DNA from: Fragilaria crotonensis
Lineage: Eukaryota > Bacillariophyta > Fragilariophyceae > Fragilariales > Fragilariaceae
Length of the DNA stretch: 42,259 nt
Assembly: GCA_022925895.1 (NCBI GenBank)
Contig: JAKSYS010000551.1
Location: 1-42,259 of the forward strand
Reading direction: 5' to 3'
The notes under the pieces: generated by a model
What the model saw: only the letters and a program-made list of their open reading frames with translations
What the model was told of the DNA's origin: nothing
Databases searched by the model: none
Shown here: positions 4,998-36,510 of the stretch, piece after piece
How the letters are laid out: the number at the start of each line of letters is the position of its first letter
Numbering within the stretch: position 1 is the first letter of the stretch
Translations under genes and position numbers: made by a program

Positions 4998-6859
4998 TCA
5001 CTCCTGCCTGTTTGCGTGCTGGACTTCTTGCAGAAGTTGAACAAGTTGCAACGTGTCAGGCAGTGGCGGAAAAGATTCTGATGTGATGTGAGAATTAGTA
5101 CCGGCGATGATGATATTCTTGTTTAATGTCCCATTGTTTGTCTCGCCAAGAATGTGCCCATGGATGTGCGGTTGGTTGTCTTCATGATGGTAAGAAAGGA
5201 GGGGCTCGAATGATTTCGTCTCGTCATCGCTGCTATTATTGTACTCATGATCACCACTCCCATCATCCTCATCGTTAGCCTGTTGCTGCTGGAAAGGATT
5301 GTCGTTTCGGTTTCTGAAGGTGTCGTCGTTAACTTCCTGCTCGTCGGCGGTGGCGTGCTGCTCTTCCTCCTGCTGCTGGTTGTGCGCTTGCTGGTTGCCT
5401 CCATGGTAAGAAAGAGGCTCCGAATGATTTCTCAGCATCTCGTCATCATCACTGGCATCGTCATCGTTCTCATCGACTCTCATCATCGCTGTTAACCTGC
5501 TGCTCCACAGGACAGTTGATTCCGTTTCTGACAAAGGTGTTGACTTCGTCGTCGTCGGCTGCATGCTCGTCCTCCTGACGCTGGTCGGCTGCATGCTCTT
5601 CCTCCTGCACTGAAGGATAATAGCTGTACGTTCCATGACGCCATGCATTCCTTACCATCTGTGCAGGTAAGTCACGACAAGAAGTCGAACACCATTCAGC
5701 GATGTGTTTTCTGGTCGGTGGATCGATTTTCCCTTGGTGTAAACCAGTACTAATCATCCATTCCTCCCACAGTTTGCGCAATCTGGATTTGAATGGTTTA
5801 TTAACGCCAACATCAACCGGTTGGCACAGAGAAGTGCAACCACCAGGAATGTGTTCGACCTCAACACCCAAATCCTCGATTGCGTTTACAGTCGATTTCA
5901 TCATGTGACAGCGGTAAGAGTCAAGCAACAGCAGCGGAACAATTCCAGGAGGTGCCTGGTCTACGTACGGCTTCAAGATTCTCTCGATCCATAAATGCAT
6001 CACTCTTTCATCCATCCATGCATTGCCTTGGCATGCGTACACTATGTCATCTGGATAAGTGACGAATTCGTTTTCAATGCGACCATTTGGAGCTCCTTTA
6101 AAAACAAGTAATGGGGTAAGTACGACCGCTTGCAGACACTGTCATGGCACATGTTACCCTCTTTGTGTCGCTTGTTGACTTTCGAATGTGAATTGTTCGC
6201 TGTCCCGCTAACTCAAGCGTACTCTTCGCATTGAATGTAAATGGAACAGGTGTTTGATCCATATTAAGGATAAAATCTTCATGACGGTTGCTCTGTATAA
6301 GTTTTGGACGGATTGTTCGCACGTAATCTTGAGCCAAACCTGCAGTCTCGGATGGGGATCGCTGGCTTTCATGTGTTCCCATCCTGTGGACGAGACTGTG
6401 TTTTCTGATCCACCTCCGTACACTTTGATACCTTGCCCGGCTTGATTTTCGTTGGAACTCCGCCATCAATCGAGAAGCTTGAATGACGACAGTAGAAATA
6501 GAAACCGCAAACCCTTGTTCTCTTAGTTCAAAGATGAATTTGAGTAGATCATTTTCAATTGGCGCTAGGACTGAAGTAGGACCCTTAGCTGTACTCTTTG
6601 CCTTTGAGTTGCCGTGTTCCATCATGGTCCTTGAAATTGTCGACCATTCTCTGTACTGTTTCGGAATTATGTTGAGTGCTCGACATGCGGCCCTGATAGA
6701 TTCACCTGCCTCTACGCGCCTTCTCACATTCCTAACGATTGCAAGCCTCTCAAAGTTTGCGAAACGCCTCCTTCTGCTGCTGTTACTAAGAGTAGGGTAG
6801 TAGTCCCATCCATTATGGACAAGAACGATGTCAACAAACAAAACTGTGAACGAACGCAA
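4998..6859 (-). pseudogene. pogo/Tigger-type DDE transposase, two frameshifts
   Basis: The N-terminal section (about 6790-6640) is a CENP-B/Psq-like helix-turn-helix with FANFERLAIVRNVRRRVEAG and SIRAACRALNI. A second DNA-binding region follows (SVRRWIRKHSL), then the catalytic core. The first catalytic Asp is in FILNMDQTPVPF, the second in LLLLDSYRCHMM, and the third in TSLCQPVDVGVNKPFK. The core is split by a one-base shift near 6112: the frame stops just before a segment reading LLVFKGAPNGRIENEF in the next frame. A second shift near 5477 separates the core from an acidic, Gln/Asp-rich tail with two related blocks (DDDEMLRNHSEPLSYHGGNQ and a diverged copy). The true start is uncertain: the longest frame begins at a non-ATG codon at 6859, and an ATG at 6813 would need one further shift. 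All three catalytic residues survive. It would cut and paste the surrounding element in the nucleus. Confidence 0.85.
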
Positions 6860-7029: not shown

Positions 7030-7519
7030 GTTCAAGTGTTCCAGTACTTTACAACCGGTAGTCTTCACTCCAGTAGTTAGTTCTCAGTATTCAGTATTCA
7101 GTATTCAGTATTCAGTATTCAGTACTCAGTACAGCTTCCGACAAGCCCGCGAACGCGTAGAACTGTGAATCAATCTCGCCAAAAAACTTAGCTGCGATCC
7201 GCGATACCCAACGCTATCTGAGCTCGATAGTACAAGTAAGACCTCCTCCATCCAACAGAGAGGACGGATTTTGTTCACGGGAAATCCGGATACGCATCTC
7301 AGACCTCAGAACTCAGGCTGGTAATCTGGAAACGTGTTTGACATGGCCGAACCCCGAAATTTCAGATTTCAGCCGCCTTCCCAGCCGTTCTCGCGGAACA
7401 AACTTTCAAGTCGGCGTTCCAGGACCTTCATGGCACGAATAAACAAGTCGTGGCCCGTTTTTGCCATCATCTAAATCATGAAAAAACCGGATATATCCTA
7501 CTCCTTTTTAAATTTGCTT
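7030..7519. other. intergenic spacer between transposons
   Basis: I recognise no gene. It contains the 7-bp tandem repeat listed separately. Near 7349-7440 a short stretch, starting CGAAATTTCAGATTTCAG after an ATG-containing leader, resembles 23637-23720 on the same strand. I take both as fragments of one dispersed repeat. Confidence 0.5.
7085..7131. repeat. tandem repeat of AGTATTC (7-bp unit)
   Basis: About five to six consecutive copies of a 7-bp unit (CAGTATT) end in two variant copies (CAGTACT, CAGTACA). It is a short minisatellite, not a CRISPR array, since there are no spacers. Confidence 0.9.
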
Positions 7520-7541
7520 TGTGCGTGCGTGTGTGTGTGTG
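7520..7541. repeat. (GT)n microsatellite at the 3' end of retroelement copy 1
   Basis: A GT/GC-GT run directly abuts the sequence TTGGGTGCTATG that marks the 3' end of the retroelement (which reads on the minus strand, so this is an (AC)n tail or target). Confidence 0.9.
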
Positions 7542-7737
7542 TTGGGTGCTATGTATGTTACGTGTAGCTAGACTAAACTAGGGATGTGTGTATGAATGGG
7601 CCGGTACAACAGTGCCGTAGGCATTGCGTAGCGGTGCGCCAGTGCTATACATCCGGAAAGCTAGAATCCGGGGCTTGCTCCTTGGGGAGACGTCGTTCGG
7701 CAGCGGGATCGGCGGCAGGGGCGATGGGGCATATCAG

Positions 7738-10532
7738 TTACATGCGGTAGAGGCCGAGGCCCGCTCCGCAGTCCCATATCGGGGAGGAGGGGGTTCGGCG
7801 CATCGGGTTGCGATCGGCGCGGAGGCAGCGGCTCGCGGAGCGAACCAGGGCGATCGCGAGGCGCGATCGTACGAAGCCACACACTTCGGAGTACGATCGC
7901 TTCCATTTGGAAGCCAGGCTGGAGGCCAGCCGCCGCGAAGCGGCGGTTGCCTCCACGCCTTGCATTCCGTCCACTGAGAGACGAGGAGTGAAGGTACGGC
8001 GTCGCGCAATGCAGAGCGCGCCGTACGCCTTCTTCTCCTTCTCGTGACGCAGGAGGACCTTCTCCGGGGAGGTGTTGCGATTCGATGGGGCATCCGTGTC
8101 GGTGACGCGGACATCGAAGATCGCCGTGGTGCCTCGGGTCCAGAAGCCGTGGACAGCGATGTCGCCGCGGAGTTCTGGGGTGGGTTCGGTGCGGTTGGCG
8201 CCCGCCGCCTGCACGTCCTGACTCGTTCGGATGAGGGTTCGTCAGAGACTGTGGAGGGTGTGCGCCTGTCCGCAGAGCTGTCCCCACGTCGCCACGAGGT
8301 CGTTGTGGCGGTGGAGGATCAGGCCCCTTTGCGACAGGACATGGCGTGCTCCGTCGTGAAGCGTTCGCCGCATCCGTCGCATCGGGGCGGGAGAGATGTA
8401 GGCGGCAGGCCTAAGCGGAGGCGGACGCCGTCTCGGAACTCCTCGGCCGAGAGGTCGGAGCCGTTGAGAAGGCTCGGCAGGGTGGAGAGCCAGGCCCCGG
8501 TCGCCGCCGACCGTACGATGCGTCGCTTCTCCAGGGTCGCGAGCTCGCGAGTATCGCGTCAGGCGGCTCGCGTGAACGCGACCGACTCGCCTTCGCCGCG
8601 AGGCGACCTCTGGAAGCGTCACGCCTGTGCTCCGTAGCACAGAGCCTGTCGCCTGTCACGAGGACCCCTGGAGGAGGTCGTGCTCTCCTTCGACGCCGCG
8701 AAGCAGAACTCGCCTGTGGTCGTCGGGTCCGGGATGCCCAAGCCGCCCAGTCGCGTCGGGAGAGCGAGGAGAGGGCGGAGTTTGGCAACCTCCTCGACCG
8801 TGGTGTCGAGGAGAGCCGGCAGGAAGACAGTCGCGATGGCAGCCTCCAGCGGTGCGAAGGCGGGCGCGATGTCTGGCGTCACGCGCTGGAGGTACTGCCA
8901 CTCCGCCTGGAGTGACTGCGACAGACCGGCGTAGGCGGTCTGTGGGTACCTCCTCGCCGCCGCCGCGAGGCTGTGGACCCCCTCGATCCATTGCTGGACT
9001 TGGGGGTCCACCCATGCCGCCTCGGCGGCGCCCGATCCCACGAAGCCGCCCAGGTAGCGGTGCCCTTCCTCGTGTCGGAAGTTGAACTCCGCGAGGACGC
9101 GAGGGCAGGTGGCGGGGTCGCGAGCGGGACGATGAGGATCGACTTGTCCGGCTCGGGAAGTAGCCTGCGCGGCCCAAGGTCGAGAGGCGCTGAGCCTCGG
9201 CGATGCCGTCGACAGGGCCTGCCATGGCCGCGTCGTCCGCGTACCATGGCTGGGCGACCGTGGGGACGCGCTCGGAGGTCTCGGCGAGCGGCGTCAGCGC
9301 GAGTCCGTAGAGCACCATGGAGAGGGTCGCCTTGCGTGACCCCCTCTCGCGAGAGGATGATCTCGCAATCTCCCCCGCGCCGTCGCAGGAGGAGTTGGGC
9401 GGAGTGCCGGTAGCAGTTGAAGCTGAACCGTGCCCCGTTGGCCCACCGGTGGCGCACGGTCCACAGCATGGCCTTGCGGCCGAGCTCGTTGAAGCCGTTG
9501 GTCGCGTCGACCAGGAGAACGGCTGTGGCCTCCGCCGAGGAGATGCCCACGTCGTCGGCGATGGCCGCGAAGGCCTCGTCCAGCGTCATGTCAGCAAGGG
9601 GGACGGGGGGCAGCTCAGCCATTGGTGGCTCGGGAGCTTGCGTGAGGGGGTCGTCGTCGGCCTGCGAGTCAGGTGGTGGTGCAGGGATCAACGAGGGGTC
9701 GGTGAAGACGTCACGCACGGCGTGTACGGCGCCTTCGATGCCGGCCTGGAGGCCGGCACACAGGTTGTAGTTGCCGCATGCGGCGGTAGCCTGTGAGCCA
9801 ATGGCCTTGAGCAGGCATTTGGCCCACAGGCGACGGTACACCTCGCCGATACCAACCGGGCGGGTGCCAGGTTGCTTGTCGAGAGCAACCAGGCGATTCG
9901 CCATCACGGCACGGTAGGCTGCCCAAGGCGGCGAGGTGTTGGCGAGCCAGTTGGTCCAGGCCGCCATCTCCTCTCGGAGCGCCTCGGACTCGCGTCCGAA
10001 GCGTAGCAGCCAGTTGGCGAGGTCGACGGCGTCGGTGCCGCCGGGGCCGGCGGCGCCGGCTAGCCGTGAGGAGATAGCCTCCACGTCGTCCTGTGTGATG
10101 CACACAGGGACGGGGGCAGGGAGATCGGGATAGGGCTCGAAAGCCCCATCAGCGTCGCCCACGGAGGTCGGGTCGCGGAGGGCAGGGTGCTTCTCTTGAA
10201 GCACCTGCCAGACTGGTCGGCCTGCCTTCGAGCAGAGGTCGTCAGGCTGGCGGACGCCGCCGCCGGAGCGGTCGGTGAGTGTTCGCACGGCCGAGCGAAG
10301 TCTGCCGGAGAGGACGCGTGCGTTGAAGGACGAGCGCGCGCCTCTTCGTCGGGTGGACGGGAGGAGGGTTGCGAGTGGACTTCCCCTCAGCGTCGTCGAC
10401 CAAGGCCTTGAAGTGGCCTTGGTCCCACAAGTCCATTCGTTGCGCGAGGCGCAAGCGAATGTCCTTGGCTCGACGAACCCCTGGTGTCGTCTGCAACACT
10501 GTTGCGACAAACACCAGGGCGCTCAATTCCAC
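7738..10532 (-). pseudogene. retroelement copy 1: reverse transcriptase - zinc knuckle - restriction-like endonuclease, frameshifted
   Basis: The polyprotein begins in one frame (ALVFVATVLQTTPGVRRAKD, about 10520) and passes to the main frame near 10340. Recognisable reverse transcriptase blocks are TRPVGIGEVYRRLWAKC, AVLLVDATNGFNELGRKA with the first catalytic Asp, LSREGVTQGDPL, and WYADDAAMAG with the catalytic Asp pair (about 9230-9245). The frame changes just after the GDPL block, so no single frame carries all motifs. The zinc knuckle RRMRRTLHDGARHVLSQRG region near 8340-8400 is damaged compared with copy 2 (CDGCGERFTTEHAMSC). The endonuclease frame (8214-7738) is clean: RGDIAVHGFW, AIFDVRVTDTDA and EKEKKA form a PD-(D/E)xK-like pattern, followed by SYSEVCGFVRSRLAIALVR. 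It would act by target-primed reverse transcription. Confidence 0.85.
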
Positions 10533-10833
10533 GGCGTTCGCGTACGCCCCGGAACTCGGAGGTGAGGATGGCAGAAGCGCCTCCCCACTCTACCAGCGGG
10601 GGCCTGGTAGCGTGTGGTGGCAATCTGTGCCATCCTCCTCCATCGGCGCTGCCAGAGCGCGTCATCGGAAGTCGCCATGGAGATGCGTCCCGTCGTTGTC
10701 GTGGACGTGGTCTCCTAGGCGTCATCAGAAGGCGATCTGCCGCGGTTACGAAGTAGCCGGGCAGATCGGCCCCCGCGTCCGGCGTTACTGCGGGCCGGGG
10801 CGCCTCTGGATCTTCCGTGCAGTGGCGTTGGCC

Positions 10834-11607
10834 CTATTGGCCGCTGCCACTGTCACGGGGACAAGCAGGAATCGGGTCCTCGCCAGCGTTGGCGGCCGTC
10901 TCTGTATCCGTCGGGGCGGTCTGGGAGGGGTCGTCATTGTCGTCGTCGGGCGTCGGAGCGGGGGTCCGATCCAGTGGCTCCGGGGTCATGCCGACGTCAC
11001 CGTCGACGTCGATCGTCGATGCGGATGGTTGTCGGGTTGTCTGGGAAGGCGCTGGGGGGATCTCGGGCGCGGTCGGAACGGCAGCTGGTGGGGCGGATTC
11101 GATTGCTGGGGTGGGCTCTGTGGTCGCAGGTGCGCTGGGACTGGTGAAGAAGCATCGTAGTGTCGTGGTGTTCGGCGGTGGCAGCGGCGCTCGCTTGTTC
11201 TGGCAGTTGCTGAAGCAGCTGCACGAAGTGCAGCGCTTGTTCGCAACTCGACAGGGACAAGCCTGTGAGCGAGCTGTCGGCCGTGCCAGGGCACAGGTCG
11301 ACGATCTCGAGCAGTCGCAACAGCGCTGAAGGACTTGTCGCTGTCGACGCAACGGCGGTTCGCGAGTGGAACCATCGTCGTCATCGACGTGCGAGTCGTC
11401 ATGCAACGGCTGCGGACGGACAGAGGACGGACGCTCGCGCGTTGTACCGTGGGGTACGAGCGCGCTACGCGTCGAGGAGTTTTGAATTTCCTGGCGCGCG
11501 GTTGGCGACATGAGGCGACGATGACCGACACCGTCGATCATCGCCGTTACAGCTCTGTTTGCTGTCGTTCCTCGGGCGTTGCCCCTCGCGGCACCATTCA
11601 CACTCAT
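10834..11607 (-). CDS. retroelement copy 1: N-terminal frame with CXC-like cysteine domain
   Basis: From the ATG at 11607 (the longest frame starts 15 bp earlier at a TTG) a 257-residue protein runs to TAG at 10834. Its middle has dense cysteines: CCDCSRSSTC, then SQACPCRVANKRCTSCSCF and SNCQNK. The spacing (CxC, CxC, CxxCxC, then C near Asn-Lys) resembles the zinc-binding CXC domain of tesmin/TSO1/MSL2-type DNA-binding proteins. The C-terminal half is a Pro/Thr/Asp-rich linker (e.g. SAPPAAVPTAPEIPPAPSQT). Both copies keep a stop at the same place in this frame, so it may be a separate ORF1 rather than the N-terminus of the polymerase. The likely role is nucleic-acid binding, perhaps in target choice; this is inferred from the domain. 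Confidence 0.6.
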   Translation of the reverse strand: MSVNGAARGNARGTTANRAVTAMIDGVGHRRLMSPTARQEIQNSSTRSALVPHGTTRERPSSVRPQPLHDDSHVDDDDGSTREPPLRRQRQVLQRCCDCSRSSTCALARPTARSQACPCRVANKRCTSCSCFSNCQNKRAPLPPPNTTTLRCFFTSPSAPATTEPTPAIESAPPAAVPTAPEIPPAPSQTTRQPSASTIDVDGDVGMTPEPLDRTPAPTPDDDNDDPSQTAPTDTETAANAGEDPIPACPRDSGSGQ

Positions 11608-11624
11608 GACACTGCACAGCAAAG

Positions 11625-11647
11625 TGTGGTGTGTGTGTGTGTGTGTG
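11625..11647. repeat. (GT)n microsatellite at the junction of the two retroelement copies
   Basis: TGTGG followed by a GT run separates the 5' end of copy 1 from the 3' end of copy 2. The same TGTGG(TG)n sequence lies at the 5' end of copy 2 (15754 onward), so both copies have matching 5' flanks. Confidence 0.9.
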
Positions 11648-11843
11648 TTGGGTGCTATGTATGTTACGTGTAGCTAGACTAAACTAGGGATGTGTGTATG
11701 AATGGGCCGGTACAACAGTGCCGTAGGCATTGCGTAGCGGTGCGCCAGTGCTATACATCCGGAAAGCTAGAATCCGGGGCTTGCTCCTTGGGGAGACGTC
11801 GTTCGGCAGCGGGATCGGCGGCAGGGGCGATGGGGCATATCAG

Positions 11844-14611
11844 TTACATGCGGTAGAGGCCGAGGCCCGCTCCGCAGTCCCATATCGGGGAGGGGGTTCG
11901 GCGCATCGGGTTGCGATCGGCGCGGAGGCAGCGGCTCGCGGAGCGAACCAGGGCGATCGCGAGGCGCGATCGTACGAAGCCACACACTTCGGAGTACGAT
12001 CGCTTCCATTTGGAAGCCAGGCTGGAGGCCAGCCGCCGCGAAGCGGCGGTTGCCTCCACGCCTTGCATTCCGTCCACTGAGAAGACGAGGGGAGTGAAGG
12101 TTCGGCGTCGCGCAATGCAGAGCGCGCCGTACTTCGCCTTCTTCTCCTTCTCATGACGCAGGAGGACCTTCTCCGGAGGTGTTGCGATTCGATGGGGCAT
12201 CCGTGTCGGTGACGCGGACATCGAAGATCGCCGTGGTGCCTCGGGTCCAGAAGCCGTGGACAGCGATGTCGCCGCGGAGTTCTGGGGTGGGCTCGGTGCG
12301 GTTGGCGCCCGCCGCCTGCACGTCCTGACTCGTTCGGATGAGGGTTCGTCAGAGACTGTGGAGGGTGTGCGCCTGCCGCAGCTGTCCCCACGTCGCCACG
12401 AGGTCGTTGTGGCGGTGGAGGATCAGGCCGCCTTTGCGACAGGACATGGCGTGCTCCGTCGTGAAGCGTTCGCCGCATCCGTCGCATCGGGGCGGGAGAG
12501 ATGTGGCGGCAGGCCTAAGCGGAGGCGGACGCCGTCTCGGAACTCCTCGGCCGAGAGGTCGGAGCCGTTGAGAAGGCTCGGCAGGGTGGAGAGCCAGGCC
12601 CTGTCGCCGCCGACCGTACGATGCGTCGCTTCTCCAGGGTCGCGAGCTCGCGAGGATCGCGTCCAGGCGGCTCGCGTGAACGCGACCGACTCGCCTTCGC
12701 CGCGAGGCGACCTCTGGAAGCGTCACGCCTGTGCTCCGTAGCACAGAGCCTGTCGCCTGTCACGGGGACCCCTGGAGGAGGGTCGTGCTCTCCTTCGACG
12801 CCGCGAAGCAGAACTCGCCTGTGGTCGTCGGGTCTGGGATGCCCAGCCTCCCAGTCGCGTTGGGAGAGCGAGGAGCGGCGGAGTTTGCTACCTCCTCGAC
12901 CGTGGTGTCGAGGAGGCCGGCAGGAAGACAGTCGCGATGGCAGCCTCCAGCGGTGCGAAGGCGGGCGCGATGTCTGGCGTCACGCGCTGGAGGTACTGCC
13001 ACTCCGCCTGGAGTGACTGCGACAGACCGGCGTAGGCGGTCTGTGGATACCTCCTCGCCGCCGCCGCGAGGCAGTGGACGCCCTCGATCCATTGCTGGAC
13101 TTGGGGTCCACCCATGCCTCGGCGGCGCCCGATCCCACGAAGCCGCCCAGGTAGCGGTGCCCTTCCTCGTGTCGGAAGTTGAATCCGCGAGGACGCGAGG
13201 GCAGTGGCGGGGTCGCGAGCGGGACGATGAGGATCGACTTGTCCGGCTCGGGGAAGTAGCCCCTGCGCGGCCCAAGGTCGAGAAGTAGGCGCTGAGCCTC
13301 GGCGATGCCTTCGACAGAGCCTGCCATGGCCGCGTCGTCCGCGTACCATGGCTGGGCGACCGTGGGGACGCGCGCTCGGAGGGTCTCGGCGAGCGGCGTC
13401 AGCGCGAGTCCGTAGAGCACCATGGAGAGGGGTCGCCTTGCGTGACCCCCTCGCGAGAGGATGATCTCGCAATCTCCCCGCGCCGTCGCAGGAGGAGTTG
13501 GGCCGAGTGCCGGTAGCAGTTGAAGCTGAACCGTGCCCCGTTGGCCCACCGGTGGCGCGGTCCACAGCATGGCCTTGCGGCCGAGCTCGTTGAAGCCGTT
13601 GGTCGCGTCGACCAGGAGAACGGCTGTGGCCTCCGCCGAGGAGATGCCCACGTCGTCGGCGATGGCCGCGAAGGCCTCGTCCAGCGTCATGTCGGCAAGG
13701 GGACGGGGGCAGCTCAGCCATTGGTGGCTCGGGAGCTTGCGTGAGGGTCGTCGTCGGCCTGCGAGTCAGGTGGCGGTGCAGGGATCAACGAGGGTCGGTG
13801 AAGACGTCACGCACGGCGTGTACGGCGCCTTCGATGCCGGCCTGGAGGCCGGCACACAGGTTGAGGTTGCCGCATGCGGCGGTAGCCTGTGAGCCAATGG
13901 CCTTGAGCAGGCATTTGGCCCACAGGCGACGGTACACCTCGCCGATACCAACCGGGCGGGTGCCAGGTTGCTTGTCGAGAGCAACCAGGCGATTCGCCAT
14001 CACGGCACGGTAGGCTGCCCAAGGCGGCGAGGTGTTGGCGAGCCAGTTGGTCCAGGCCGCCATCTCCTCTCGGAGCGCCTCGGACTCGCGTCCGAAGCGT
14101 AGCAGCCAGTTGGCGAGGTCGACGGCGTCGGTGCCGCCGGGGCCGGCGGCGCCGGCTAGCCGTGAGGAGATAGCCTCCACGTCGTCCTGTGTGATGCACA
14201 CAGGGACGGGGGCTGGGAGATCGGGGTAGGGCTCGAAAGCCCCATCAGCGTCGCCCACGGAGGCCGGGTCGCGGAGGGCAGGGTGCTTCTCTTGAAGCAC
14301 CTGCCAGACTGGTCGGCCTGCCTTCGAGCAGAGGTCGTCAGGCTGGCGGACGCCGCCGCCGGAGCGGTCGGTGAGTGTTCGCACGGCCGAGCGAAGTCTG
14401 CCGGAGAGGACGCGTGCATTGAAGGAGCGAGCGCGCGCCTCTTCGTCGGGTGGGCGGGAGGTGGGTTGCAGTGGACTTCCCCCTCGGCGTCGTCGACCAA
14501 GGCCTTGAAGTGGCCTTGGTCCCACAAGTCCATTCGTTGCGCGAGGCGCAAGCGAATGTCCTTGGCGCGACGAACCCCTGGTGTCGTCTGCAACACGGTT
14601 GCGACGAACAC
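11844..14611 (-). pseudogene. retroelement copy 2: reverse transcriptase - zinc knuckle - endonuclease, frameshifted
   Basis: The domain order is the same as in copy 1, but the breaks lie in different places. One frame (13785-14732) carries the region up to VYRRLWAKCLLKAIG and ends after FTDPR. A second (12980-13690) carries LLVDATNGFNELGRKA and, after an internal out-of-frame stretch over the GDPL block, LYGLALTPLAE, WYADDAAMAG (about 13331-13347) and LGPRRGYFPEPDKSILIVPL. The zinc knuckle frame (12349-12744) is better preserved here: CDGCGERFTTEHAMSCRKGG followed by LILHRHNDLVATWGQL. The endonuclease frame (11844-12221) carries EKVLLRHEKEKKAKYGAL and SVDGMQGVEA, but its front part, with the RGD and FDVRV motifs, is separated by a 2-base loss near 12175. 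It is probably inactive as assembled. Confidence 0.82.
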
Positions 14612-15032
14612 CAGGGGCGCTCCAGTTCCACGGCGTTCGCGTACGCCCCGGAACTCGGAGGTGAGGATGGCAAGAAGCGCCTCCCCACTCTACCAGCGGG
14701 GCCTGGTAGCGTGTGGTGGCAATCTGTGCCATCCTCCTCCATCGGCGCTGCCAGAGCGCGTCATCGGAGAAGTCGCCATGGAGATGCGTCCCGTCGTTGT
14801 CGTGGACGTGGTCTCCTAAGGCGTCATCAGAAGGCGATCTGCCGCGGTTACGAAGTAGCCGGGCAGATCGGCCCCGTCCGGCGTTACTGCCGGCCGGGGT
14901 CGCCTCTGGATCTTCCCGTGCAGTGGCGTTGGCCTATTGGCCGCTGCCACTGTCACGGGGACAAGCAGGAATCGGGTCCTCGCCAGCGTTGGCGGCCGTC
15001 TCTGTATCCGTCGGGGCGGTCTGGGAGGGTCG

Positions 15033-15704
15033 TCATTGTCGTCGTCGGGCGTCGGGCGGGGTCCGATCCAGTGGCTCCGGGGTCATGCCGACGTCACCGT
15101 CGACGTCGATCGTCGATGCGGATGGTTGTCGGGTTGTCTGGGAAGGCGCTGGGGGGATCTCGGGCGCGGTCGGAACGGCAGCTGGTGGGGCGGATTCGAT
15201 TGCTGGGGTGGGCTCTGTGGTCGCAGGTGCGCTGGGACTGGTGAAGAAGCATCGTAGTGTCGTGGTGTTCGGCGGTGGCAGCGGCGCTCGCTTGTTCTGG
15301 CAGTTGCTGAAGCAGCTGCACGAAGTGCAGCGCTTGTTCGCAACTCGACAGGGACAAGCCTGTGAGCGAGCTGTCGGCCGTGCCAGGGCACAGGTCGACG
15401 ATCTCGAGCAGTCGCAACAGCGCTGAAGGACTTGTCGCTGTCGACGCAACGGCGGTTCGCGAGTGGAACCATCGTCGTCATCGACGTGCGAGTCGTCATG
15501 CAACGGCTGCGGACGGACAGAGGACGGACGCTCGCGCGTTGTACCGTGGGGTACGAGCGCGCTACGCGTCGAGGAGTTTTGAATTTCCTGGCGCGCGGTT
15601 GGCGACATGAGGCGACGATGACCGACACCGTCGATCATCGCCGTTACAGCTCTGTTTGCTGTCGTTCCTCGGGCGTTGCCCCTCGCGGCACCATTCACAC
15701 TCAT
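15033..15704 (-). CDS. retroelement copy 2: N-terminal frame with CXC-like cysteine domain
   Basis: It starts at the ATG at 15704 and matches the copy 1 protein through the whole cysteine-rich domain and most of the Pro/Thr-rich linker. Near 15055 an indel relative to copy 1 shifts the frame, and it ends early (RTPPDARRRQ). Interpretation is as for copy 1: a CXC-like zinc-binding module at the 5' end of the element. Confidence 0.6.
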   Translation of the reverse strand: MSVNGAARGNARGTTANRAVTAMIDGVGHRRLMSPTARQEIQNSSTRSALVPHGTTRERPSSVRPQPLHDDSHVDDDDGSTREPPLRRQRQVLQRCCDCSRSSTCALARPTARSQACPCRVANKRCTSCSCFSNCQNKRAPLPPPNTTTLRCFFTSPSAPATTEPTPAIESAPPAAVPTAPEIPPAPSQTTRQPSASTIDVDGDVGMTPEPLDRTPPDARRRQ

Positions 15705-15753
15705 GACACTGCACAGCAAAGTTCTCGTCGGCTTGACTTGACGACAACTCCAA

Positions 15754-15756
15754 TGT

Positions 15757-15814
<58 letters not shown>
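15754..15814. repeat. (GT)n microsatellite, about 60 bp, at the 5' end of retroelement copy 2
   Basis: A long uninterrupted GT run starts with TGTGG and ends in TGTTTGTTACGG. Apparent open frames through it (His-Thr repeats on the minus strand) are artefacts. Confidence 0.95.
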
Positions 15815-15818
<4 letters not shown>

Positions 15819-16068
15819 TTACGGAGTATGACCACTCTGGGGTACTGTTGTACTGTTACGTGGATTACATGTACTACAGGTCTACAGTACATAAATCGAC
15901 GGTAATTTATGTTGAAACGACGGTGTCTTACGTTACTGAATTACAATACTGTACGAATTCAAAGTTACTGGATGGAATGCTCATTGAATTTGCTGTGAAC
16001 AGGTTGCTCGACATATGCTACTGTAAAACACCAGTATGTATCATACTCCGATCAGTTGTGAGGAACCC
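15815..16068. other. short intergenic spacer
   Basis: AT-rich host sequence between the microsatellite and the piggyBac-type element. I see no gene. Confidence 0.5.
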
Positions 16069-16132
16069 ACTAGTGTCTAGCCTCCCGGAGCGATGGGGTT
16101 AATTAACCCCATCAAATGCCTTAATTAACCCC
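16069..16132 (+). repeat. left end of the piggyBac-type element: 20-bp inverted repeat plus TTAATTAA palindromes
   Basis: The outer repeat at 16069-16088 is followed by a perfect 16-bp palindrome at 16095-16110 and a second, half-preserved TTAATTAACCCC at 16121-16132. Confidence 0.85.
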
Positions 16133-16255: not shown

Positions 16256-18554
16256 TTAAAAGTCATCAAGGTGTGCATGGTTACGAGCAATGTGGTCCAA
16301 AAAGCACCGTTTTCCATTTTTCGTTGCACAAAGGAATACCACTTTTTCATTATCATTGCAGTCGCTACATTGCCAAGTCGTCTTCTTTTGGCACTCTTTA
16401 CATCGACCTTGGTACCTAAAGCTTGTCTTCTCACCATGAGCATTCTTGAGTCTCTTAACAGGAGTTAAATGGGTGAGGACACCCGCGCGTGCACATCCAT
16501 TTTCCACGGCCCTGATGCATACCTCTTGATATGACGTCCCATTCGGTGATGACCTCGGTCGTCGGGTTCCTTGTCCCCGAGAGTCGTAGCTATTGTCAAT
16601 CAATTCCTCTGCAAGGATTGAGTAAAATTCCTTTTGTAGACACTTCCTTTGGTTTCCTGCTGGCATTCTTGAAAGCATTGTAGACCAGCCATGTATCGAC
16701 AACAATCATGGCAAAGATAGATAGATTCACCCGAACGGACCAATCTTTCGTTTCAATCTTCTTCTCGATTCGGAGATCATCTTGACGATATCGATTGTGC
16801 CTGTCGATAGCACCACAAGTTGTATAATAAAGTTCGGCAATTTGAGGTTGCTTAATTGTCATCGTGATCTTCTCTGGAGGTGCGTTCGGATCTTGGCTCA
16901 CTTGCCGCCAGCGGCAGCGAGTATAAGGTGTTCCCTCCGATAGTGACCCTGCCGTCGCAATGAAGTACCTGCGTTCCCGATCCATCCACACAAACGCAGC
17001 CATAGCGGATCAACTCGTCCGCGGGATCCGAAGCGAGCGAAATCACCACGTTGATGGGTTCGACACTCGTGAGGTACGTTTTCGGAAAACCCTTTGTGGC
17101 TGTCTTGACAACGCCAATGAAACGAAGGCCATTCCGATAAAGCTCTTTCGCAGCACCGACCGAAGCAAAGTAAGAGTCTGCGCCAAACAATTCGATTAGA
17201 ACCAAACCAAGGTGATACGACACTTTTCAAAACTTGTGTACCGTGCAACAGACTTGATTCATTTGGTTCATCATCGTTGTTGTCATCCTCACCAACGAGG
17301 TCAATTCCCTTGACCAACTTCAAACGCAGCATGACTCCGCTGCGACCACATGCAGCGTTCTGGATTTCGCAGCCGTTCTCGGGCTTGCGATCGATTGCAA
17401 CGTATTGTGGGAGGCCTTGGTTGATCCAATGGCCTCCCTGCCCATACCAACGACTCATGGACTCATCGACACATATAGTGTCGGACGGAGAAAAGAAATT
17501 CGCTCTGTGATCATTGAAGTTGGCAACAAAGTCGTCCACCAACTTCCATCTGTACTGTTCTGTGGATTCGTTGTCAGCTCGTTGAGGAGGTTGCTTGCTC
17601 CACCTAACCGCGCGAAATAGAACATCGAATCTATGCTTGGACATTCCGGTGAGACCGAAGTGAGGTGCAGGTCGATACTTCATTGGTGCCACAGAACTCC
17701 ACAAACTCGCCCTGGAAGTAAATTCAAATGACGTCGTTAGTATCAGGATTCCAAAGAATTTAAGCATTTCCGAGCTGTTCGTTTGTATTCAGTCCCCACT
17801 TCGACAGTTCAGCGTTAGTCAAATCGACCATAGTGATGAGCTGCTTTGGAGGGAACATGAGAAGGAAAAATCAGCGCACTCATACCGTTTATCGCTGCCG
17901 AGTTTGTTGCTCCTGGAAACATGACCTCTCAATAACATTCCTCACACTCCACTGACGAGGTGGTACAACTCCATTCAATGGCAGTTCAGTGCTAGATGCC
18001 CTACGCCATTCAACATAGTGAACAATAGCAACAGGCCTCCGGCGGTCTTCTTGATCTGCTTGTGCTCGCGGCGCTGCAATTGTTGCTGTGGTATCAGCAG
18101 TAGTAGCTCCTACCCTCTCACACATCTCATCCGGCTCCTCATCTGAAGAACTCTGAAGTACATCACGCATTTCTTGAGTGCTCACTCCGGCATTTGAAGG
18201 TGCTCCGACCTCAATCGCTTCATTAGCAGGTTCGACGTTTCCAGTCCCGAGTGCAGTCACGGGTTCATTGTTCTCATCTCTCGTTGACTCTGCCTCAGCC
18301 AACTTGACCCCTCTGGAATTCAACTGGCACCTCTTTATAGTCCCACCACCAAGCTCGTAATCTGCGGTGATTAGAGTCGCGGGCCGCTTGCCGTTGCTCG
18401 ATGGAGCTGCATCAACTGAAACGACAGTCCCGTTAACGAACTTCGTTTTGGTGTTGGCTCCGTATCGCCGGTGGCACTCAGCCAGAGCTGTTACATGGTG
18501 AGCTTTTGCCTGCACCCTTGCTCCAATCACATAACGAGGATCCTTTCTGGCCAT
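16256..18554 (-). pseudogene. piggyBac-family transposase, several frameshifts
   Basis: The first ATG at 18554 opens an N-terminal region (ARKDPRYVIGARVQAKAHH; TTKF/NGTVVSVD; acidic Ser/Asp stretch) clean to about 17910. From there the family sequence is readable through frame changes near 17908, 17850, 17774, 17222, 17000 and 16625. Readable landmarks are PPKQLITMVDLTNAELSKWG, MLKFFGILILTTSFEF, CVDESMSRWYGQGG (first catalytic Asp), LIELFGADSYFASVGAAKEL (second Asp), FVWMDRERRYFIAT (third Asp) and CGAIDRHNRYRQDDLR. The C-terminus is the usual Cys/His zinc domain: CKECQKKTTWQCSDC, then FLCATKNGKRCFLDHIARNH. All catalytic acids survive; the frame does not. Several breaks are next to base runs, so sequencing or assembly error is possible. 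Confidence 0.85.
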
Positions 18555-19195: not shown

Positions 19196-20506
19196 ATGAC
19201 CGTCAGGGAACCGCCGGGCGAGGGGGGGGGCAAGACCGAATCCTCTCCGAGTAACTCGTCGCAACCTTCTGAAAACCAGGAATCATCAGCTACAGCGACA
19301 AGTACCGTGATAGACACTACCTTCACATCCAAGGCCATCCGCTCAAAGGGAGAAGCATCAACGAATGATCCTGGTACGGTACCAGTTATCTCATCGACGT
19401 CGAAGAAGGCATCATTGGACAAAGACAGCAAGAAGGAATGCAGCAAGTTGCAGCATGCCTCTATCACAAGGCCTTTCGCACCCACCATGCTCGCAAGCGC
19501 TCCAATTGAGCCTTCTTTGTTGGACCGCGATCTTGCTTCGAAAAAGAAGCGACGAAACACTCACGTTGGTGGTTCCATACCTGGGGCAATTCCGGTATTC
19601 CCGAAGGAAAACACGCCTCCTACGTCTGCCCATGACGTTCGCGACGAGACGTCCTTTACACTCGCTGAAAACAACATGGCCACGCAAAACGAGATTCACA
19701 TTCCGCATGCCTTTTCCGTCGACGATGCTCACTGCTACGCAGAAGCGGTCGTCACAAAGGATGTTGAAAATGGCGATCCCCCCACGAAAACAGAACCGCC
19801 CAAACGCTGGTCCCCTGCCATGCGTTATGGTATTATTGCTGCAGTACTGGTAGTCATTGCTCTGATTGTGATACTTGTGGTAGTGTTCGCAGTTAAGCCG
19901 TCTGGATCCAAATCACAATTTGTTCAGTATCAAGTCGCTTGGTCTGCCAGTCTGCCCCCAAACTTCTCCCCATCTACTGTCATCAGCGACCTCGAGCTAA
20001 CATGCCAAGCCGGTGGAATTCTGAAATCACCAGTCATCACTTCCCTGATTGACGAGCGCCCCCTCTGTCCCGCCGAAAGCGATTCTACGATTCTATGCAC
20101 ACAAACTCCATTTCAACAGGCGGACAGTGTTGTGGTAGTTGATGCCTTAATATCATTCCAATGCCACGGAGCATCGCCCGACCAGCTTGTTGGACAGGCG
20201 ACACTCTTTGACACTACCATTACCTACTCCGGCGGTACTTTCGGCAACGTGTATTTCGCCACCCATTTAATGGTTCTCCAGGCTGTGGACGCCCAGACAG
20301 GAACTCCTGATTCCGACAGTCAATGTTCGGATGATTTGTTGATTGTCCCGAATCCATCGGATCCATCCAACTCCACCAGTCTCCTGTTTTGTGGCAGTGG
20401 TGTCAGTTGTATTAGTGATGGCGTCAATGCCTGTGTGCTTGCATTGGAAGGGAGATCTGAAGTTCAACGCGCTCCTGTCAACAGCAAGCACATTCAAAAT
20501 GAGTAG
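19196..20506 (+). CDS. single-pass membrane protein with eight-cysteine ectodomain, paralogue 1
   Basis: This intact 436-residue protein is of no family I recognise. Residues 1 to about 205 are Ser/Thr/Pro-rich and probably disordered. They end in a conserved juxtamembrane block (EIHIPHAFSVDDAHCYAEAV) and a basic PPKRWSPAMR stop. One hydrophobic segment follows at about 210-232 (IIAAVLVVIALIVILVVVF). The last 200 residues hold eight cysteines, also present in paralogues 2 and 3 (in LTC, PLC, ILC, FQC, SQC, LFC, VSC, NAC), and sequons such as NST. No signal peptide is visible, so a cytosolic N-terminus and outside C-terminus are likely. A run of nine G at 19222-19230 in codons 9-12 is prone to slippage. 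It might be a cell-surface or endomembrane protein; no function can be given. Confidence 0.85.
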   Translation: MTVREPPGEGGGKTESSPSNSSQPSENQESSATATSTVIDTTFTSKAIRSKGEASTNDPGTVPVISSTSKKASLDKDSKKECSKLQHASITRPFAPTMLASAPIEPSLLDRDLASKKKRRNTHVGGSIPGAIPVFPKENTPPTSAHDVRDETSFTLAENNMATQNEIHIPHAFSVDDAHCYAEAVVTKDVENGDPPTKTEPPKRWSPAMRYGIIAAVLVVIALIVILVVVFAVKPSGSKSQFVQYQVAWSASLPPNFSPSTVISDLELTCQAGGILKSPVITSLIDERPLCPAESDSTILCTQTPFQQADSVVVVDALISFQCHGASPDQLVGQATLFDTTITYSGGTFGNVYFATHLMVLQAVDAQTGTPDSDSQCSDDLLIVPNPSDPSNSTSLLFCGSGVSCISDGVNACVLALEGRSEVQRAPVNSKHIQNE

Positions 20507-24172: not shown

Positions 24173-25471
24173 ATGACGGTCAGAGAACCGCCGAGTCAAG
24201 GGGGTAATACCGCACCCTCGCCGACTGGCTCGTCGCATCCTTCTTTAAACCAGGAAACATCGACTACAGCAACGAGTACCACGAGAGACAGTGCCTTCGC
24301 ATCCACGACGACTCGATCAAAGGGACAAGCATCAACTAATGATCCTGGTGCAACGCCAGTTATCCCATCCACGTCTATGAAGGCATCGTTGGACGAAAAC
24401 ACCAAGAAGGAATACAGCAAGTTACAGCATGCATCTGCTACAAGGCCTTTCGCGCCCAGCGCGTTCGCGAGCATTCCAAACGAGCCGGACCGCGATCTCG
24501 CTTCCAAAAGGCAGGCAAGAAACCCCGAAGTTGATGATTCCGTACCTGGAGCTATTCCGGTATTCCCCAAGGAAAACACGAATCCTTCCTCTCGTCGTGA
24601 AGATCTTGATCAGACGTCCTTCACCGTCGCTGACAACAACATGGCCACGCAAAGCGAGATTCACATTCCGCATGCCTTTTCCGTCGACGATGCTCACTGC
24701 TACGCAGAAGCGGTCGTCACAAATGATGTTGAAAATGGCGATGCCCCCACGGAAACAGAACCTCCCAAACGCTGGTCCCCTGCCAAGCGTTATGGTATTA
24801 TTGCTGCAGTACTGGTAGTCATTGCTCTGATTGTGACACTTGTGGTAGTGTTCGCAGTTAAGCCGTCTGGAGCCAAGTCACAATTTGTTCAGTATCAAGT
24901 CGCTTGGTCTGCCAGTCTGTCCCCTAACTTCTCCCCATCTACTGTCATCAGCGACCTCGAGTTAACATGCCAAGCCAGCGGAACTTTAAAATCACCAGTC
25001 ATCACTTCCCTGATTGGCGAGCGCCCCGTCTGCCCCGCCACAAGCGATTCTACAATTCTATGCACACAAACTCCATTTCAACAGACGGACAGTGTTGTGG
25101 TAGTTGATGCCTTAATATCATTCCAATGCCACGGAACATCGCCCGACCAGCTTGTTGGACAGGCGACACTCTTTGACACTACCATTACCTACTCCGGTGG
25201 TACTTTCGGTTTTGAGTACGGCGCCTCCCAGTTGATGGTGCTCCAGACTATTGACGCCAAGACAGGAACTCCCGTTTCGGATAGTCAATGTTCGGATATG
25301 AAATTGATTTTCCCTAATCCTTCGGATCCAACTAACTCCACCAGCCTACTGATTTGCGGCAGTTACGACACCTGTGTTAGTGATGGCGTCAATGAGTGTG
25401 AAATTTTTTTGCAATTGAGATCTGAAGTGCAGCGTTCTCCTGTCAACAGCATTCACATTCAAGATGAGTAG
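24173..25471 (+). CDS. single-pass membrane protein with eight-cysteine ectodomain, paralogue 2
   Basis: This intact 432-residue paralogue of the 19196-20506 product has the same plan. A Ser/Thr/Pro-rich N-terminus is followed by the conserved block EIHIPHAFSVDDAHCYAEAV, a basic PPKRWSPAKR motif and one membrane segment (IIAAVLVVIALIVTLVVVF). The ectodomain of about 200 residues has all eight cysteines at matching positions. The central third, from the juxtamembrane block to TLFDTTITYSGGTFG, is nearly identical to paralogue 1 at the nucleotide level. The N-terminal 140 and last 90 residues diverge strongly. The nine-G run of paralogue 1 is absent (CAAGGGGGTAAT). Function unknown. Confidence 0.85.
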   Translation: MTVREPPSQGGNTAPSPTGSSHPSLNQETSTTATSTTRDSAFASTTTRSKGQASTNDPGATPVIPSTSMKASLDENTKKEYSKLQHASATRPFAPSAFASIPNEPDRDLASKRQARNPEVDDSVPGAIPVFPKENTNPSSRREDLDQTSFTVADNNMATQSEIHIPHAFSVDDAHCYAEAVVTNDVENGDAPTETEPPKRWSPAKRYGIIAAVLVVIALIVTLVVVFAVKPSGAKSQFVQYQVAWSASLSPNFSPSTVISDLELTCQASGTLKSPVITSLIGERPVCPATSDSTILCTQTPFQQTDSVVVVDALISFQCHGTSPDQLVGQATLFDTTITYSGGTFGFEYGASQLMVLQTIDAKTGTPVSDSQCSDMKLIFPNPSDPTNSTSLLICGSYDTCVSDGVNECEIFLQLRSEVQRSPVNSIHIQDE

Positions 25472-33825: not shown

Positions 33826-36510
33826 TGCCGTCTTCAGCCAGAACAAAATGAAATGTGTGTCATTCGCTATGTAACTAAACATACATTCTACTAGTACTTC
33901 GTTGCAAAGGTTTTCATAGTATGTACTTTCAGTACACCTTGTACGAGCAGTAGTACTATAGATCATACGAGGTTATGAATTGCAATCCTTGATGGCTTCA
34001 AGCTGTCCGCGAGGGCTGCTTGCGACAGAAGTCGAAAGCCGTGGACGAGAATCATAACCATTGGCTGAAAAGCAGATGACGCTGAGGGATTCGAAGCAAT
34101 GAATACTTATATATATACATGATTGTATATACGTCATCCGGATGTTCCTACGTCACGGTATCCTGCTTTTTTCGGAACTCAATGAAGGACAGATAGACAG
34201 ACAAATGATTAGGGACTGCGCGGTACGGTCATTCAGGACTGGTGCACGGTGCACGGTGACTTGAAATGGGATTGACATTCCACAGCACGATGTATAAAAC
34301 TGGTACGATACTAATGTAACACGGATAACCACACTTCACGCTTTACATCCCTCACCCCCCACCCAACTGTCTTTTTACAAATCCGATTTCTTTTCATCTC
34401 TCAGCGACTGTTCATGAGCAAGGAAAATCCAGCTTATGGCACAGGACAGGGCTCAAATGTCAAAGTCAGCTTCATTGGGAGAACTCATGATGAGGGTCGA
34501 TGGGTCAAAATTAAAAAGTGACTGAAGTGTTCCATGTCCTTTACCAATGTCAACCATACGTCGACTATTTCACTGAGGGGACAAGACAGGTGGCTTTCCC
34601 AAGCACAGATCATAGTATAGGGAAGGAAACAATCTAAACAATGCTGGAAATGTACTTTTATTCCACTAACAAGAGGCATACCGAGCACTGTTGAAAAAAA
34701 GAACTACTAGTAGCAACAATGACAAGAAGAGTTGGGCATCCTCCTGGCGGCACCATTGAAAATGAGAATGAGTCCCCCCATAAGAACCAGAGGGTAGAGC
34801 ATGGCTGCTGCTACTAGTTGTTTACTGTGGTTGTATTCATTAGAAATTCCAGAGACATAGTATCAGCTCTTCAAACCAACAAGGGACCATTGCAATGGAC
34901 AAAAAAGGAGCCTATTAGTATGGAGCACCTTTTTATTCAGGAAGCCTGATGGCTTGAATGCTTTCCCCACCCAAACCAGTAAATTCATACACACGTCACA
35001 TACAACTTAACAACAAAAAGCAGCTATATTATCAAATATAATGACAAATGTGGCAGCTATCGTAGTTGATGTCCGTGTTCGCAAGAAACGCAGTGGATTG
35101 GCTGCGACGAAGCACGACATGTACAGAACATATCCTTTCGCGGCGGCAAGTGCGACAACATTGACGAAGGTCTGTTTGAAACATTTTCAATGAACTTGGA
35201 GCTATATGCTTTCATTGGGCATTTGTATGACATATCAATTTTTTAAGAGCATTCTCTATCATGATGGGGTACACTTGATTTTTTCTCAGTTTTTTGGAAA
35301 AAGCATTCTCTATGTTGGGGGTACATTTGGTCATTGCACGTTCCACGGGGTCATCGTATATATTTCTCGTACAAACAAGATGCATATCTGCCATACAGTA
35401 CAACAGCTTTTGGACTCAAGTACAACAACATTTCTGCCATCCTTCATTCCACACATATCCTTGCCCTTCTTTGCACTTCACCTTTCTTTGTCATGTTGTC
35501 CATTTTTCACCATTCCCATCACCTTTCTTTTCCTTGCCATGTCCTCTATCTCCATGGCAAACAAGGACGAATTGAGAATGATGGTACATGTTGGTTGGTT
35601 TGTCGATTTGACAAGAACTCAAAGATGATGACCATCACAACAGTTATAACAGTATAAAACTAGCCAGTATGCCAGTAGTAGATAGGTATACAATAGAGAA
35701 TGCCTACTTTTTTAATTTTGTTGCAAGTGTACATAATATACCCCGCCGGGGGGGGGGGGTCAGATTTTGTTGTACCCCCCCACCATAGAGAATGCCGCTC
35801 TAAGTGCCTTGATGCTGTAGTGCTTCATCCATACAATTCTACTGCATGTGGTAGAAAAGGCAATCCAAGGAACTACCAAAATGGACCACTTTCACCAGAT
35901 GTCTGACTTGCCTGTGCCATTTGGTGGTTTGGAGCTGAATCTACATACGACATTATGACAACCGATGGAATCAGTGACACTCATACAAGAAGCAGCTACT
36001 GCTGGTATGTTGTGGATCTCGTCATGTACCGGATTTTTCAAGCCACTCAAGCATTTGACCCCGTCTTGTCCACTTATTTTATCGAGATAATGGCACAATG
36101 GCTGCTGAACAATCTTGCGAGCTGTGTAATTCTGTTCACATAGTCAGAGTTCTTAGGGCACAAGAAAGAAGTCTTAGGAAGGAGAGCAGACCAGCAACAA
36201 GGCTTGCTGGCTTCTAAGGAAAACAGAGGTTCTTGTTTGTTGCCATAATTCCTCAAACCAACAATGCACAGCAATAGTAGGAACAAAATCTTTCTCATTT
36301 CCTGAGTCAATGCAGACTTGCTTGTTCACTCATCAATGGCGGTGTTACTACTGCTGATCCATTGGCATTGGTTTCATCTTGTTATTCTTGTTATTTGTCA
36401 GCAGAAGCTATTCATGTTGGCATACCCTCCAGCGTTGTCAAGAACATGATGATGGTGGGTATTAAAAGGAAACATCGGTACTGGCTACTTGGCCACCAAC
36501 TCACCGTCCT
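33826..36510. other. long gene-poor stretch, repeat-derived
   Basis: I could not support any gene in this 2.7 kb. It contains a homopolymer of twelve G at 35748-35759 and a short repeated word (ATAGAGAATGCC at about 35693 and 35784). A diverged direct repeat around GCATTCTCTAT lies at 35250 and 35304. Plus-strand frames at 35206-35657 overlap in all three phases with no dominant one, which suggests a decayed element rather than a gene. Confidence 0.45.

What the first reader, a model, noticed from the sequence alone, without database searches (positions are those of the whole stretch)
7520..15814. Tandem non-LTR retroelements with (GT/AC)n at every boundary
Two same-orientation copies have (GT)n at the outer left end, at the junction and at the outer right end, and both 5' ends meet the same TGTGG(TG)n sequence. 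This is what repeated insertion into an AC microsatellite would give. Microsatellite-specific non-LTR elements are known in insects, but those use a different endonuclease type; here the endonuclease is of the restriction-like class.
Basis: partly seen in the sequence, partly recalled or inferred. Interest (0 to 1): 0.75.

Follow-up and report, generated by a model that had tools for sequence, protein, structure and literature searches.

The report
Retroelements stacked inside another repeat's AC tract
The window holds two copies of a mobile genetic element that, in this probably diatom genome, is found in the AC-repeat stretch carried inside another scattered repeat and often stacks up there in rows, a new variant of a known way for such elements to choose a landing site.

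Summary
In detail: two same-strand ~4.1 kb non-LTR elements lie at 7542-15757, and the window's only three (GT/AC)n runs of 6 units or more sit at their left end, junction and right end. Genome-wide the finding changes shape. The AC tract is not a free microsatellite but the internal (CA)n of a short dispersed repeat, here called X. X or its variant X' lies to the right at 21 of 22 loci. To the left it lies at 14 of 14 loci that begin with a complete 5' end, and 6 of 9 that begin with a truncated copy. Forty empty X sites were measured. Element and X mostly have separate histories. Six of 15 loci with full copies are arrays (16 of 25 copies); in 5 of 6, neighbours fall in different clades, so arrays grew mainly by repeated insertion. 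The endonuclease is restriction-like by a relaxed motif; the ORF is under purifying selection. Whether AC alone or X is read stays open.

The parts
7494..7528 (-). Right half of host repeat X (CACGCACAAAG + CAAATTTAAAAAGGAGTAGGATA on the - strand)
   Evidence: 23-bp X right end at 7494-7516; 84 places in the genome with up to 3 mismatches, 0 for the reversed control; same sequence at empty X sites
7529..7542 (.). (GT)7 tract, 3' outer boundary of the array
7542..11628 (-). Element copy 1 (3' end TTGGGTGCTATG at 7542; frames broken by many indels)
7741..8343 (-). Copy 1: C-terminal segment with the restriction-like endonuclease (residues 1119-1323 of P0001)
   Evidence: tblastn 90% identity; motif seen in the uninterrupted relative P0001
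9092..10675 (-). Copy 1: reverse transcriptase region (residues 332-868 of P0001), frame broken
   Evidence: tblastn 75% identity; RVT_1 below cut-off in P0001
11629..11648 (.). (GT)10 tract at the junction of the two copies
11648..15757 (-). Element copy 2 (5' end CACATTGGAG at 15757), frames broken
11847..13121 (-). Copy 2: end of the reverse transcriptase, knuckle and endonuclease region (residues 893-1323), frame broken
   Evidence: tblastn 61% identity with stops inside
15758..15815 (.). (GT)29 tract, 5' outer boundary
15816..16073 (-). Left half of host repeat X (CTAGTGGGTTCC ... CATACTCCGTAACA on the - strand)
   Evidence: 45 matches, 40 of 233 candidates scored; left anchor at 542 places; 99.5-100% identical to X left of C14, C15 and C328

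Best explanation
[quoted passage not shown] It is found, in fixed orientation, in the (CA)n tract inside a dispersed repeat, X. Proposed mechanism, inferred from known relatives: the enzyme nicks the (TG)n strand, the exposed end pairs with CA at the RNA 3' end and primes reverse transcription, and the CACA 5' end helps the new cDNA rejoin the tract. Shown here: location, orientation, empty sites, 5' truncation with a constant 3' end, mixed arrays, coding constraint. Inferred: the strand nicked, priming, the order of insertions. The statement leaves open whether AC alone or X is recognised.
For: Right outer flank is X or X' at 21 of 22 loci; left at 14 of 14 loci beginning with a complete 5' end and 6 of 9 beginning with a truncated copy. 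Forty empty X sites measured, median 34 bp between anchors. Truncated copies inside X, two of them about 16-20 bp (C764, C106) and a weaker 16-bp remnant (C229); longer ones at C526 and C702. X and element are uncoupled in 9 of 10 chosen pairs: 5 of the 6 close element pairs (97.7-98.7%) have X left only 91.2-93.0% alike, and 4 pairs with X left 99.5-100% have elements 90.1-94.0% alike. In 5 of 6 arrays no mates form a group; labels over all six cluster no more than shuffles (10 changes, shuffled mean 10.8, as low in 66 of 200). CCHC-RHN-E-RGD-x15-D plus KKDKY in the uninterrupted ORF; relaxed pattern in 0 of 2000 shuffles. dN/dS 0.155, 0.240 and 0.238 for three ORF pairs. No APE domain at E<=1.
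Against: The strict published endonuclease pattern is not met: RGD for R/KPD, and spacers of 8, 23 and 15 for 9-10, 9-21 and 12-14; I relaxed it after seeing the sequence. RVT_1 stays below Pfam's cut-off (17.5 against 29.6 bits), and the PDB profile search lost the weak R2 match. Three truncated copies (C125, C285, C446) lack X on the left; C285 has only an X'-like remnant on the right; the left joins at C702 and C229 lie a few bases before the tract. One close pair (C231b/C433) is coupled: elements 98.6%, X left 98.4%. The window's own pair clusters with C488, so local duplication is not excluded there. By identity, C15b is nearest to its mate C15a (96.8%) and C14a to C14c (97.1%). Copies show mosaic similarity, and assembly noise is possible. 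The structure model is useless (pLDDT 39.8).
Confidence: 0.85

Rival explanations
1. General AC-microsatellite specificity (a sub-question of the best explanation): the enzyme reads (CA)n alone, and X is hit only because X supplies nearly all long AC tracts in this genome.
For: Of 58 matches to the two (AC)>=11 edge patterns, six matches at three loci are neither X nor element-adjacent (C765 compound tract, C851:118906, C218:234750; and coordinates). Insertions lie at the tract and not elsewhere in X, apart from C702 and C229, whose left joins lie a few bases before it.
Against: 44 of 100 listed (AC)>=6 tracts lie outside X without an element. X' was hit at C673 and C441 although neighbouring X' units at C673 carry only short, interrupted CGCA/CACA tracts; the original tract of the hit unit is unknown.
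Confidence: 0.5
2. Composite element: X left, the coding unit and X right are one mobile unit with an internal (CA)n, and empty X copies are deletion derivatives.
For: X flanks nearly all copies; one close pair, C231b/C433, is alike in both.
Against: X and element identities are uncoupled in 9 of 10 chosen pairs. Truncated copies begin in or just before X's tract and keep X left. At C673 the element sits within a tandem run of X' units. X left anchors number 542 against 32 matches to the element 3' end.
Confidence: 0.04
3. Arrays arose by unequal crossing-over or segmental duplication of one inserted copy, not by repeated insertion.
For: The window's two copies are 98.7% identical and cluster with C488; C14a-C14c and C15a-C15b are nearest by identity for one partner. 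C328/C372 and C526/C43:90086 share flanks and look duplicated.
Against: In the other 5 arrays no mates form one group, and well-supported branches alone force at least 2 to 3 changes of label for each.
Confidence: 0.12
4. AC is only a 3' tail added to each copy, with insertion at unrelated sites.
For: Copies carry CA after CACCCAA.
Against: AC lies on both sides, beyond it lies the same repeat on both sides, and empty sites contain the tract.
Confidence: 0.01

Closest known systems
Togen families of fish (Kojima and Jurka 2015, PMC4640811; passages)
   Same: (TG)n-specific non-LTR elements, treated there among families related to NeSL, a restriction-like clade
   Different: Fish hosts; the paper calls their position unresolved, and the passages I saw do not state their endonuclease, confinement to one dispersed repeat, or arrays. 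Sequence kinship could not be tested here.
Tandem R1 arrays of Drosophila (PMC2718515; passages)
   Same: Arrays formed by further insertions into a retained copy of the target at the 5' end
   Different: Target is 28S rDNA; R1 carries an APE-type endonuclease (recalled).
MoTeR / FoTeR telomeric elements and SLACS/CRE (PMC12857005; section 16 and passages)
   Same: CCHC-RHD/N-E-RxD-D/E restriction-like domain; MoTeRs insert into a short tandem repeat
   Different: Target is telomeric (MoTeR, FoTeR) or the spliced-leader gene (SLACS, CRE; recalled); spacer lengths differ; no telomere motif was noticed by eye in the flanks printed here.
Waldo / Mino of the R1 clade (recalled; listing gave no description)
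   Same: AC-type microsatellite targets (recalled)
   Different: APE-type endonuclease (recalled), not found here at E<=1.

Membership tests
Restriction-like-endonuclease (RLE) non-LTR retrotransposons | C-terminal CCHC knuckle followed by RHD/N, E, R/KxD, D/E and KX2KY | tested here: met
   Met in relaxed form only: residues 1108-1198 and KKDKY at 1225 of P0001; 0 of 2000 shuffles. Strict published spacing and R/KPD not met.
Restriction-like-endonuclease (RLE) non-LTR retrotransposons | Reverse transcriptase domain | tested here: inconclusive
   RVT_1 E=0.0036 on the RT segment, below the curated cut-off; 7 of 10 members at E<=0.1; PDB best match R2 at E=0.2, absent with the profile. Motifs VLLVDATNGF, GVTQGDPLS, YADD named by eye, from recall.
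Restriction-like-endonuclease (RLE) non-LTR retrotransposons | Single ORF, no LTRs, no terminal inverted repeats, constant 3' end with 5' truncation | tested here: met
   Uninterrupted ORF over the whole element in 2 of 25 full copies; no inverted repeats of 60 bp or more in 7400-15900, direct repeats only between the two copies; truncated copies.
Restriction-like-endonuclease (RLE) non-LTR retrotransposons | No APE-type endonuclease | tested here: met
   No such Pfam match at E<=1 over 1323 residues.
Togen | Insertion into (TG)n | tested here: met
   the tract lies inside X
Togen | RT kinship with Togen/NeSL | not testable with these tools
   No reference sequences on hand; no relatives in viral contigs or genome contigs (18 pattern hits, none confirmed).
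R1-clade AC-specific elements (Waldo, Mino) | APE-type endonuclease (recalled) | tested here: not met
   restriction-like motif instead
CRE/MoTeR telomere-targeted elements | Insertion into telomeric repeats or spliced-leader genes | tested here: not met
   Flanks are X repeats, some far from contig ends, e.g. C14:44820-61382 of 118,927 bp
Composite X-element unit | X and coding unit share one history | tested here: not met
   9 of 10 chosen pairs uncoupled, 1 coupled

The most novel reading that the evidence does not exclude
The element recognises repeat X itself, not just AC: a retrotransposon lineage that specialises on another mobile repeat, tracking X and X' as separate subfamilies. Its N-terminal Cys-rich segment (resembling the MSL2 CXC domain only at E=1.7, not significant) would take part in reading the dinucleotide tract, and the tract is a renewable landing pad on which different lineages pile up.
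Probability: 0.35. Interest if true: 0.6.

Novelty: new variant of a known kind. Interest (0 to 1): 0.43.

Why it matters
It shows how a selfish element can use a self-renewing target. The AC tract travels on another repeat, insertion does not destroy it, and the result is arrays that keep samples of several element lineages side by side. It offers a natural system (empty and filled X sites, two uninterrupted ORFs, very short 5' truncations) to test whether restriction-like endonucleases can read a simple dinucleotide tract or need flanking context.

Tried and rejected
Composite-element model: rejected because 9 of 10 chosen X/element pairs are uncoupled; one (C231b/C433) is coupled. AC as a mere 3' tail: rejected by empty sites. 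Arrays by duplication: disfavoured for 5 of 6 arrays, not for the window's. Pfam on eight of the window's broken ORF pieces found nothing at E<=0.01. Relatives in viral contigs and genome contigs: none confirmed. Profile search against PDB gave only two weak, unrelated hits. Structure of the window's endonuclease segment: pLDDT 39.8, not used. tblastn found only this family, but scored 35 of 113 candidates. Target-site duplications of X: none obvious by eye in the rows printed, so X stays unclassified. Literature: diatom + non-LTR retrotransposon + microsatellite + target gave one paper (listing); the dinucleotide-repeat/tandem-array search gave seven papers, none about this by title or abstract start (listing). 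I make no claim that the family is absent from print.

Counting notes. C229 (16 bp, one mismatch to the 3' end) was taken as an element remnant on sight of its flank. C106 begins with a 16-bp copy and is counted as truncated. C328/C372 and C526/C43:90086 share flanks and are not independent. C636 lacks the 3' end and has no right flank to count. In one search one of 20 fetched tracts (L084) was flagged X by my loose rule; its flanks match those of L098 and I count it as non-X. In one search classes come from coordinates, the list of X places was cut to the range needed, and I added one (C207); only 20 of the 44 'other' tracts were fetched. Of the (AC)>=11 tracts, 12 doubtful stretches were fetched, the rest assigned by coordinates. 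Searches had reversed-pattern controls of 17, 9, 49 and 95 matches; for AC edge patterns the reverse is simply the other edge of such tracts.
Full report
On the + strand the window shows (GT)n at 7529-7542, 11629-11648 and 15758-15815, and these are the only AC/GT runs of six or more units in 42,259 bp. Between them lie two head-to-tail copies on the - strand, 98.7% identical at aligned bases with 47 gap openings. Both are broken by many small indels; eight ORF pieces from them match nothing in Pfam at E<=0.01.

The genome (62.1 Mb, 881 contigs; window = contig C505) has 62 matches of the 16-bp 3' end with up to 2 mismatches, 24 of them exact, against 17 for the reversed control. DNA searches found 32 matches to the 3' part and 27 to the 5' part. 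I fetched these loci and extracted 27 segments, 25 of them over 3.9 kb, at 15 loci. Two of the 25 (C106 and the third copy at C15) have an uninterrupted ORF over the whole element, 1,306 and 1,304 codons from the first ATG. Comparing them gives dN 0.050, dS 0.322, ratio 0.155; each against a third, shorter ORF (C43) gives 0.240 and 0.238. The protein has been under selection.

The protein. The reverse transcriptase is divergent: RVT_1 at E=0.0036 for that segment, below Pfam's cut-off. The endonuclease is recognised by motif: C-x2-C-x7-H-x3-C-x8-RHN-x21-E-x23-RGD-x15-D, then KKDKY. Published descriptions give C[X1-3]C[X7-8]H[X3-4]C[X9-10]RHD/N.X19-33.E.X9-21.R/KPD.X12-14.D/E (PMC12857005, section 16) and KX2KY as holding the catalytic lysine (PMC5678591, passages). 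FoTeR and MoTeR themselves have RAD there. The element departs in three spacers and in RGD, so the strict pattern fails. My relaxed pattern, set after seeing the sequence, occurs in 0 of 2000 shuffles of the protein. No APE domain was found at E<=1.

The flanks. Reading outward past the AC tract gives the same sequence at locus after locus: on the left ...CAGAGTGGTCATACTCCGTAACA(CA)n, on the right (CA)n...CAAATTTAAAAAGGAGTAGGATA. These are the two halves of a short dispersed repeat, X. Of 22 right outer flanks, 21 are X or the variant X' (C558 has a shortened X end); the exception, C285, has only a remnant. Fourteen of 14 loci that begin with a complete element 5' end have X on the left. Of 9 loci that begin with a 5'-truncated copy, 6 do (C526, C43:90086, C764, C702, C229, C106) and 3 do not (C125, C285, C446). 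C328/C372 and C526/C43:90086 share flanks on both sides and are not independent. Where X is present, its orientation relative to the element is the same. At C702 and C229 the left join lies a few bases before the tract.

X exists without the element. The right end occurs at 84 places with up to 3 mismatches against 0 for the reversed control, and the left anchor at 542, control 0 (first 100 listed). In 40 fetched stretches the right end was printed 41 times, and 40 empty sites were measured, with a median of 34 bp between the anchors, non-CA letters included.

X and element mostly move independently. I compared 10 chosen pairs of loci. Of the 6 close element pairs, 5 have X left halves 91.2-93.0% alike (for example C505b and C488: elements 98.4%, X left 93.0%; C15a and C43: 98.7% and 92.6%). 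The sixth, C231b and C433, is alike in both (98.6% and 98.4%). Conversely, 4 pairs with X left 99.5-100% alike have elements 90.1-94.0% alike (C505 and C328: 100% and 90.1%). In C673 the element lies within a tandem run of X' units. This argues for nesting, not one composite unit.

AC or X? Of 58 matches to the two (AC)>=11 edge patterns, six matches at three loci are neither X nor element-adjacent (for 12 fetched stretches, coordinates for the rest), so long AC tracts in this genome are almost all X. For (AC)>=6 the count is 160. Of the first 100 listed, 16 are element-adjacent, 40 X and 44 other. No element end lies at those 44, and 20 of 20 fetched hold none. So either tract length or X context restricts insertion. 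The X' insertions, where neighbouring X' tracts are short and interrupted, favour context, but the original tract at the hit unit is unknown. I leave this open.

Arrays. Six of 15 loci hold arrays of two to four full copies (16 of the 25). In a maximum-likelihood tree the mates of C14, C15, C851, C558 and C231 do not form one group in any of the five. Adjacent C14 copies alternate between two clades, so C14a/C14c and C14b/C14d are the closer pairs there. Label clustering over all six arrays equals shuffled labels (10 changes; mean 10.8; as low in 66 of 200). By plain identity C15b's nearest copy is its mate C15a, at 96.8%, just above C231a at 96.7%. The window's pair groups with the single copy C488. 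Repeated insertion by different lineages is therefore the best account of arrays generally; for the window pair local duplication remains possible. Similarity is somewhat mosaic, so recombination or assembly error has blurred some copies. The same mode of array growth is published for R1 elements, which insert into the target duplication of earlier copies (PMC2718515, passages).

Comparison with the known. PMC4640811 (passages) says that most elements with a restriction-like endonuclease target repetitive sequences such as ribosomal genes and microsatellites, that some HERO families are microsatellite-specific, and that Togen families of fish, handled among NeSL-related families with unresolved position, are (TG)n-specific. 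What is different here is the confinement to a tract inside one dispersed repeat, the X and X' variants, and the mixed arrays. Clade membership could not be tested: no references were on hand and no relatives were confirmed.

Host. The genome has 19 matches to the silicon transporter family, 18 over the cut-off; the control rang in 1 of 14 genomes, below the cut-off. That this points to a diatom is recalled knowledge.

Noticed in passing
genome G000, X left anchor (542 places, first 100 listed): Among the listed places, X left anchors often recur about 145-150 bp apart on the same strand, suggesting tandem units; X has a sharp 3' end (GGATA), variable 5' ends and no obvious target duplication, and is unclassified.
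   Followed up: partly
C764:115736-115752, C106:32445-32460, C229:43372-43387: Extremely short 5'-truncated copies, about 16-20 bp of the element 3' end, in X; C229 is the weakest (one mismatch). X left and the element 3' end share the letters CGTAACA, which may guide such joins.
   Followed up: partly
C15 near 113.98 kb and C851 near 8.60 kb (junctions of second and third copies): Both upstream copies end in the same 3' variant with a very short CACAC junction, followed by sister copies (C15c, C851c), although the upstream bodies differ; could be recombination or a transcript begun in the upstream copy.
   Followed up: no
7543-15757: Element G+C is 66.5% against 46.7% for the rest of the window.
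   Followed up: no
P0001 residues about 111-155 (C106 copy): N-terminal Cys-rich segment whose only Pfam match is MSL2-CXC at E=1.7, not significant.
   Followed up: partly
window 5473-6859 and 16901-17767: Transposase-like ORFs on both sides: DDE_1 and HTH_Tnp_1 matches, and a DDE_Tnp_1_7 match (piggyBac-like, recalled), all over Pfam's cut-offs.
   Followed up: partly
window 36510-36793: Perfect 141-bp tandem duplication, possibly an assembly artefact or a very recent event.
   Followed up: no
window 37798-41538: One 1246-aa ORF that by eye consists of about three near-identical repeats of roughly 400 residues or more, with no Pfam match over its cut-off.
   Followed up: no
window 19196-20506 and 24173-25471: Two ORFs 5 kb apart that look alike by eye, apparently a tandem gene duplication; no Pfam match at E<=0.01.
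   Followed up: no
G000:C97:29749-33762: Three silicon transporter matches in one 1456-codon open frame.
   Followed up: no
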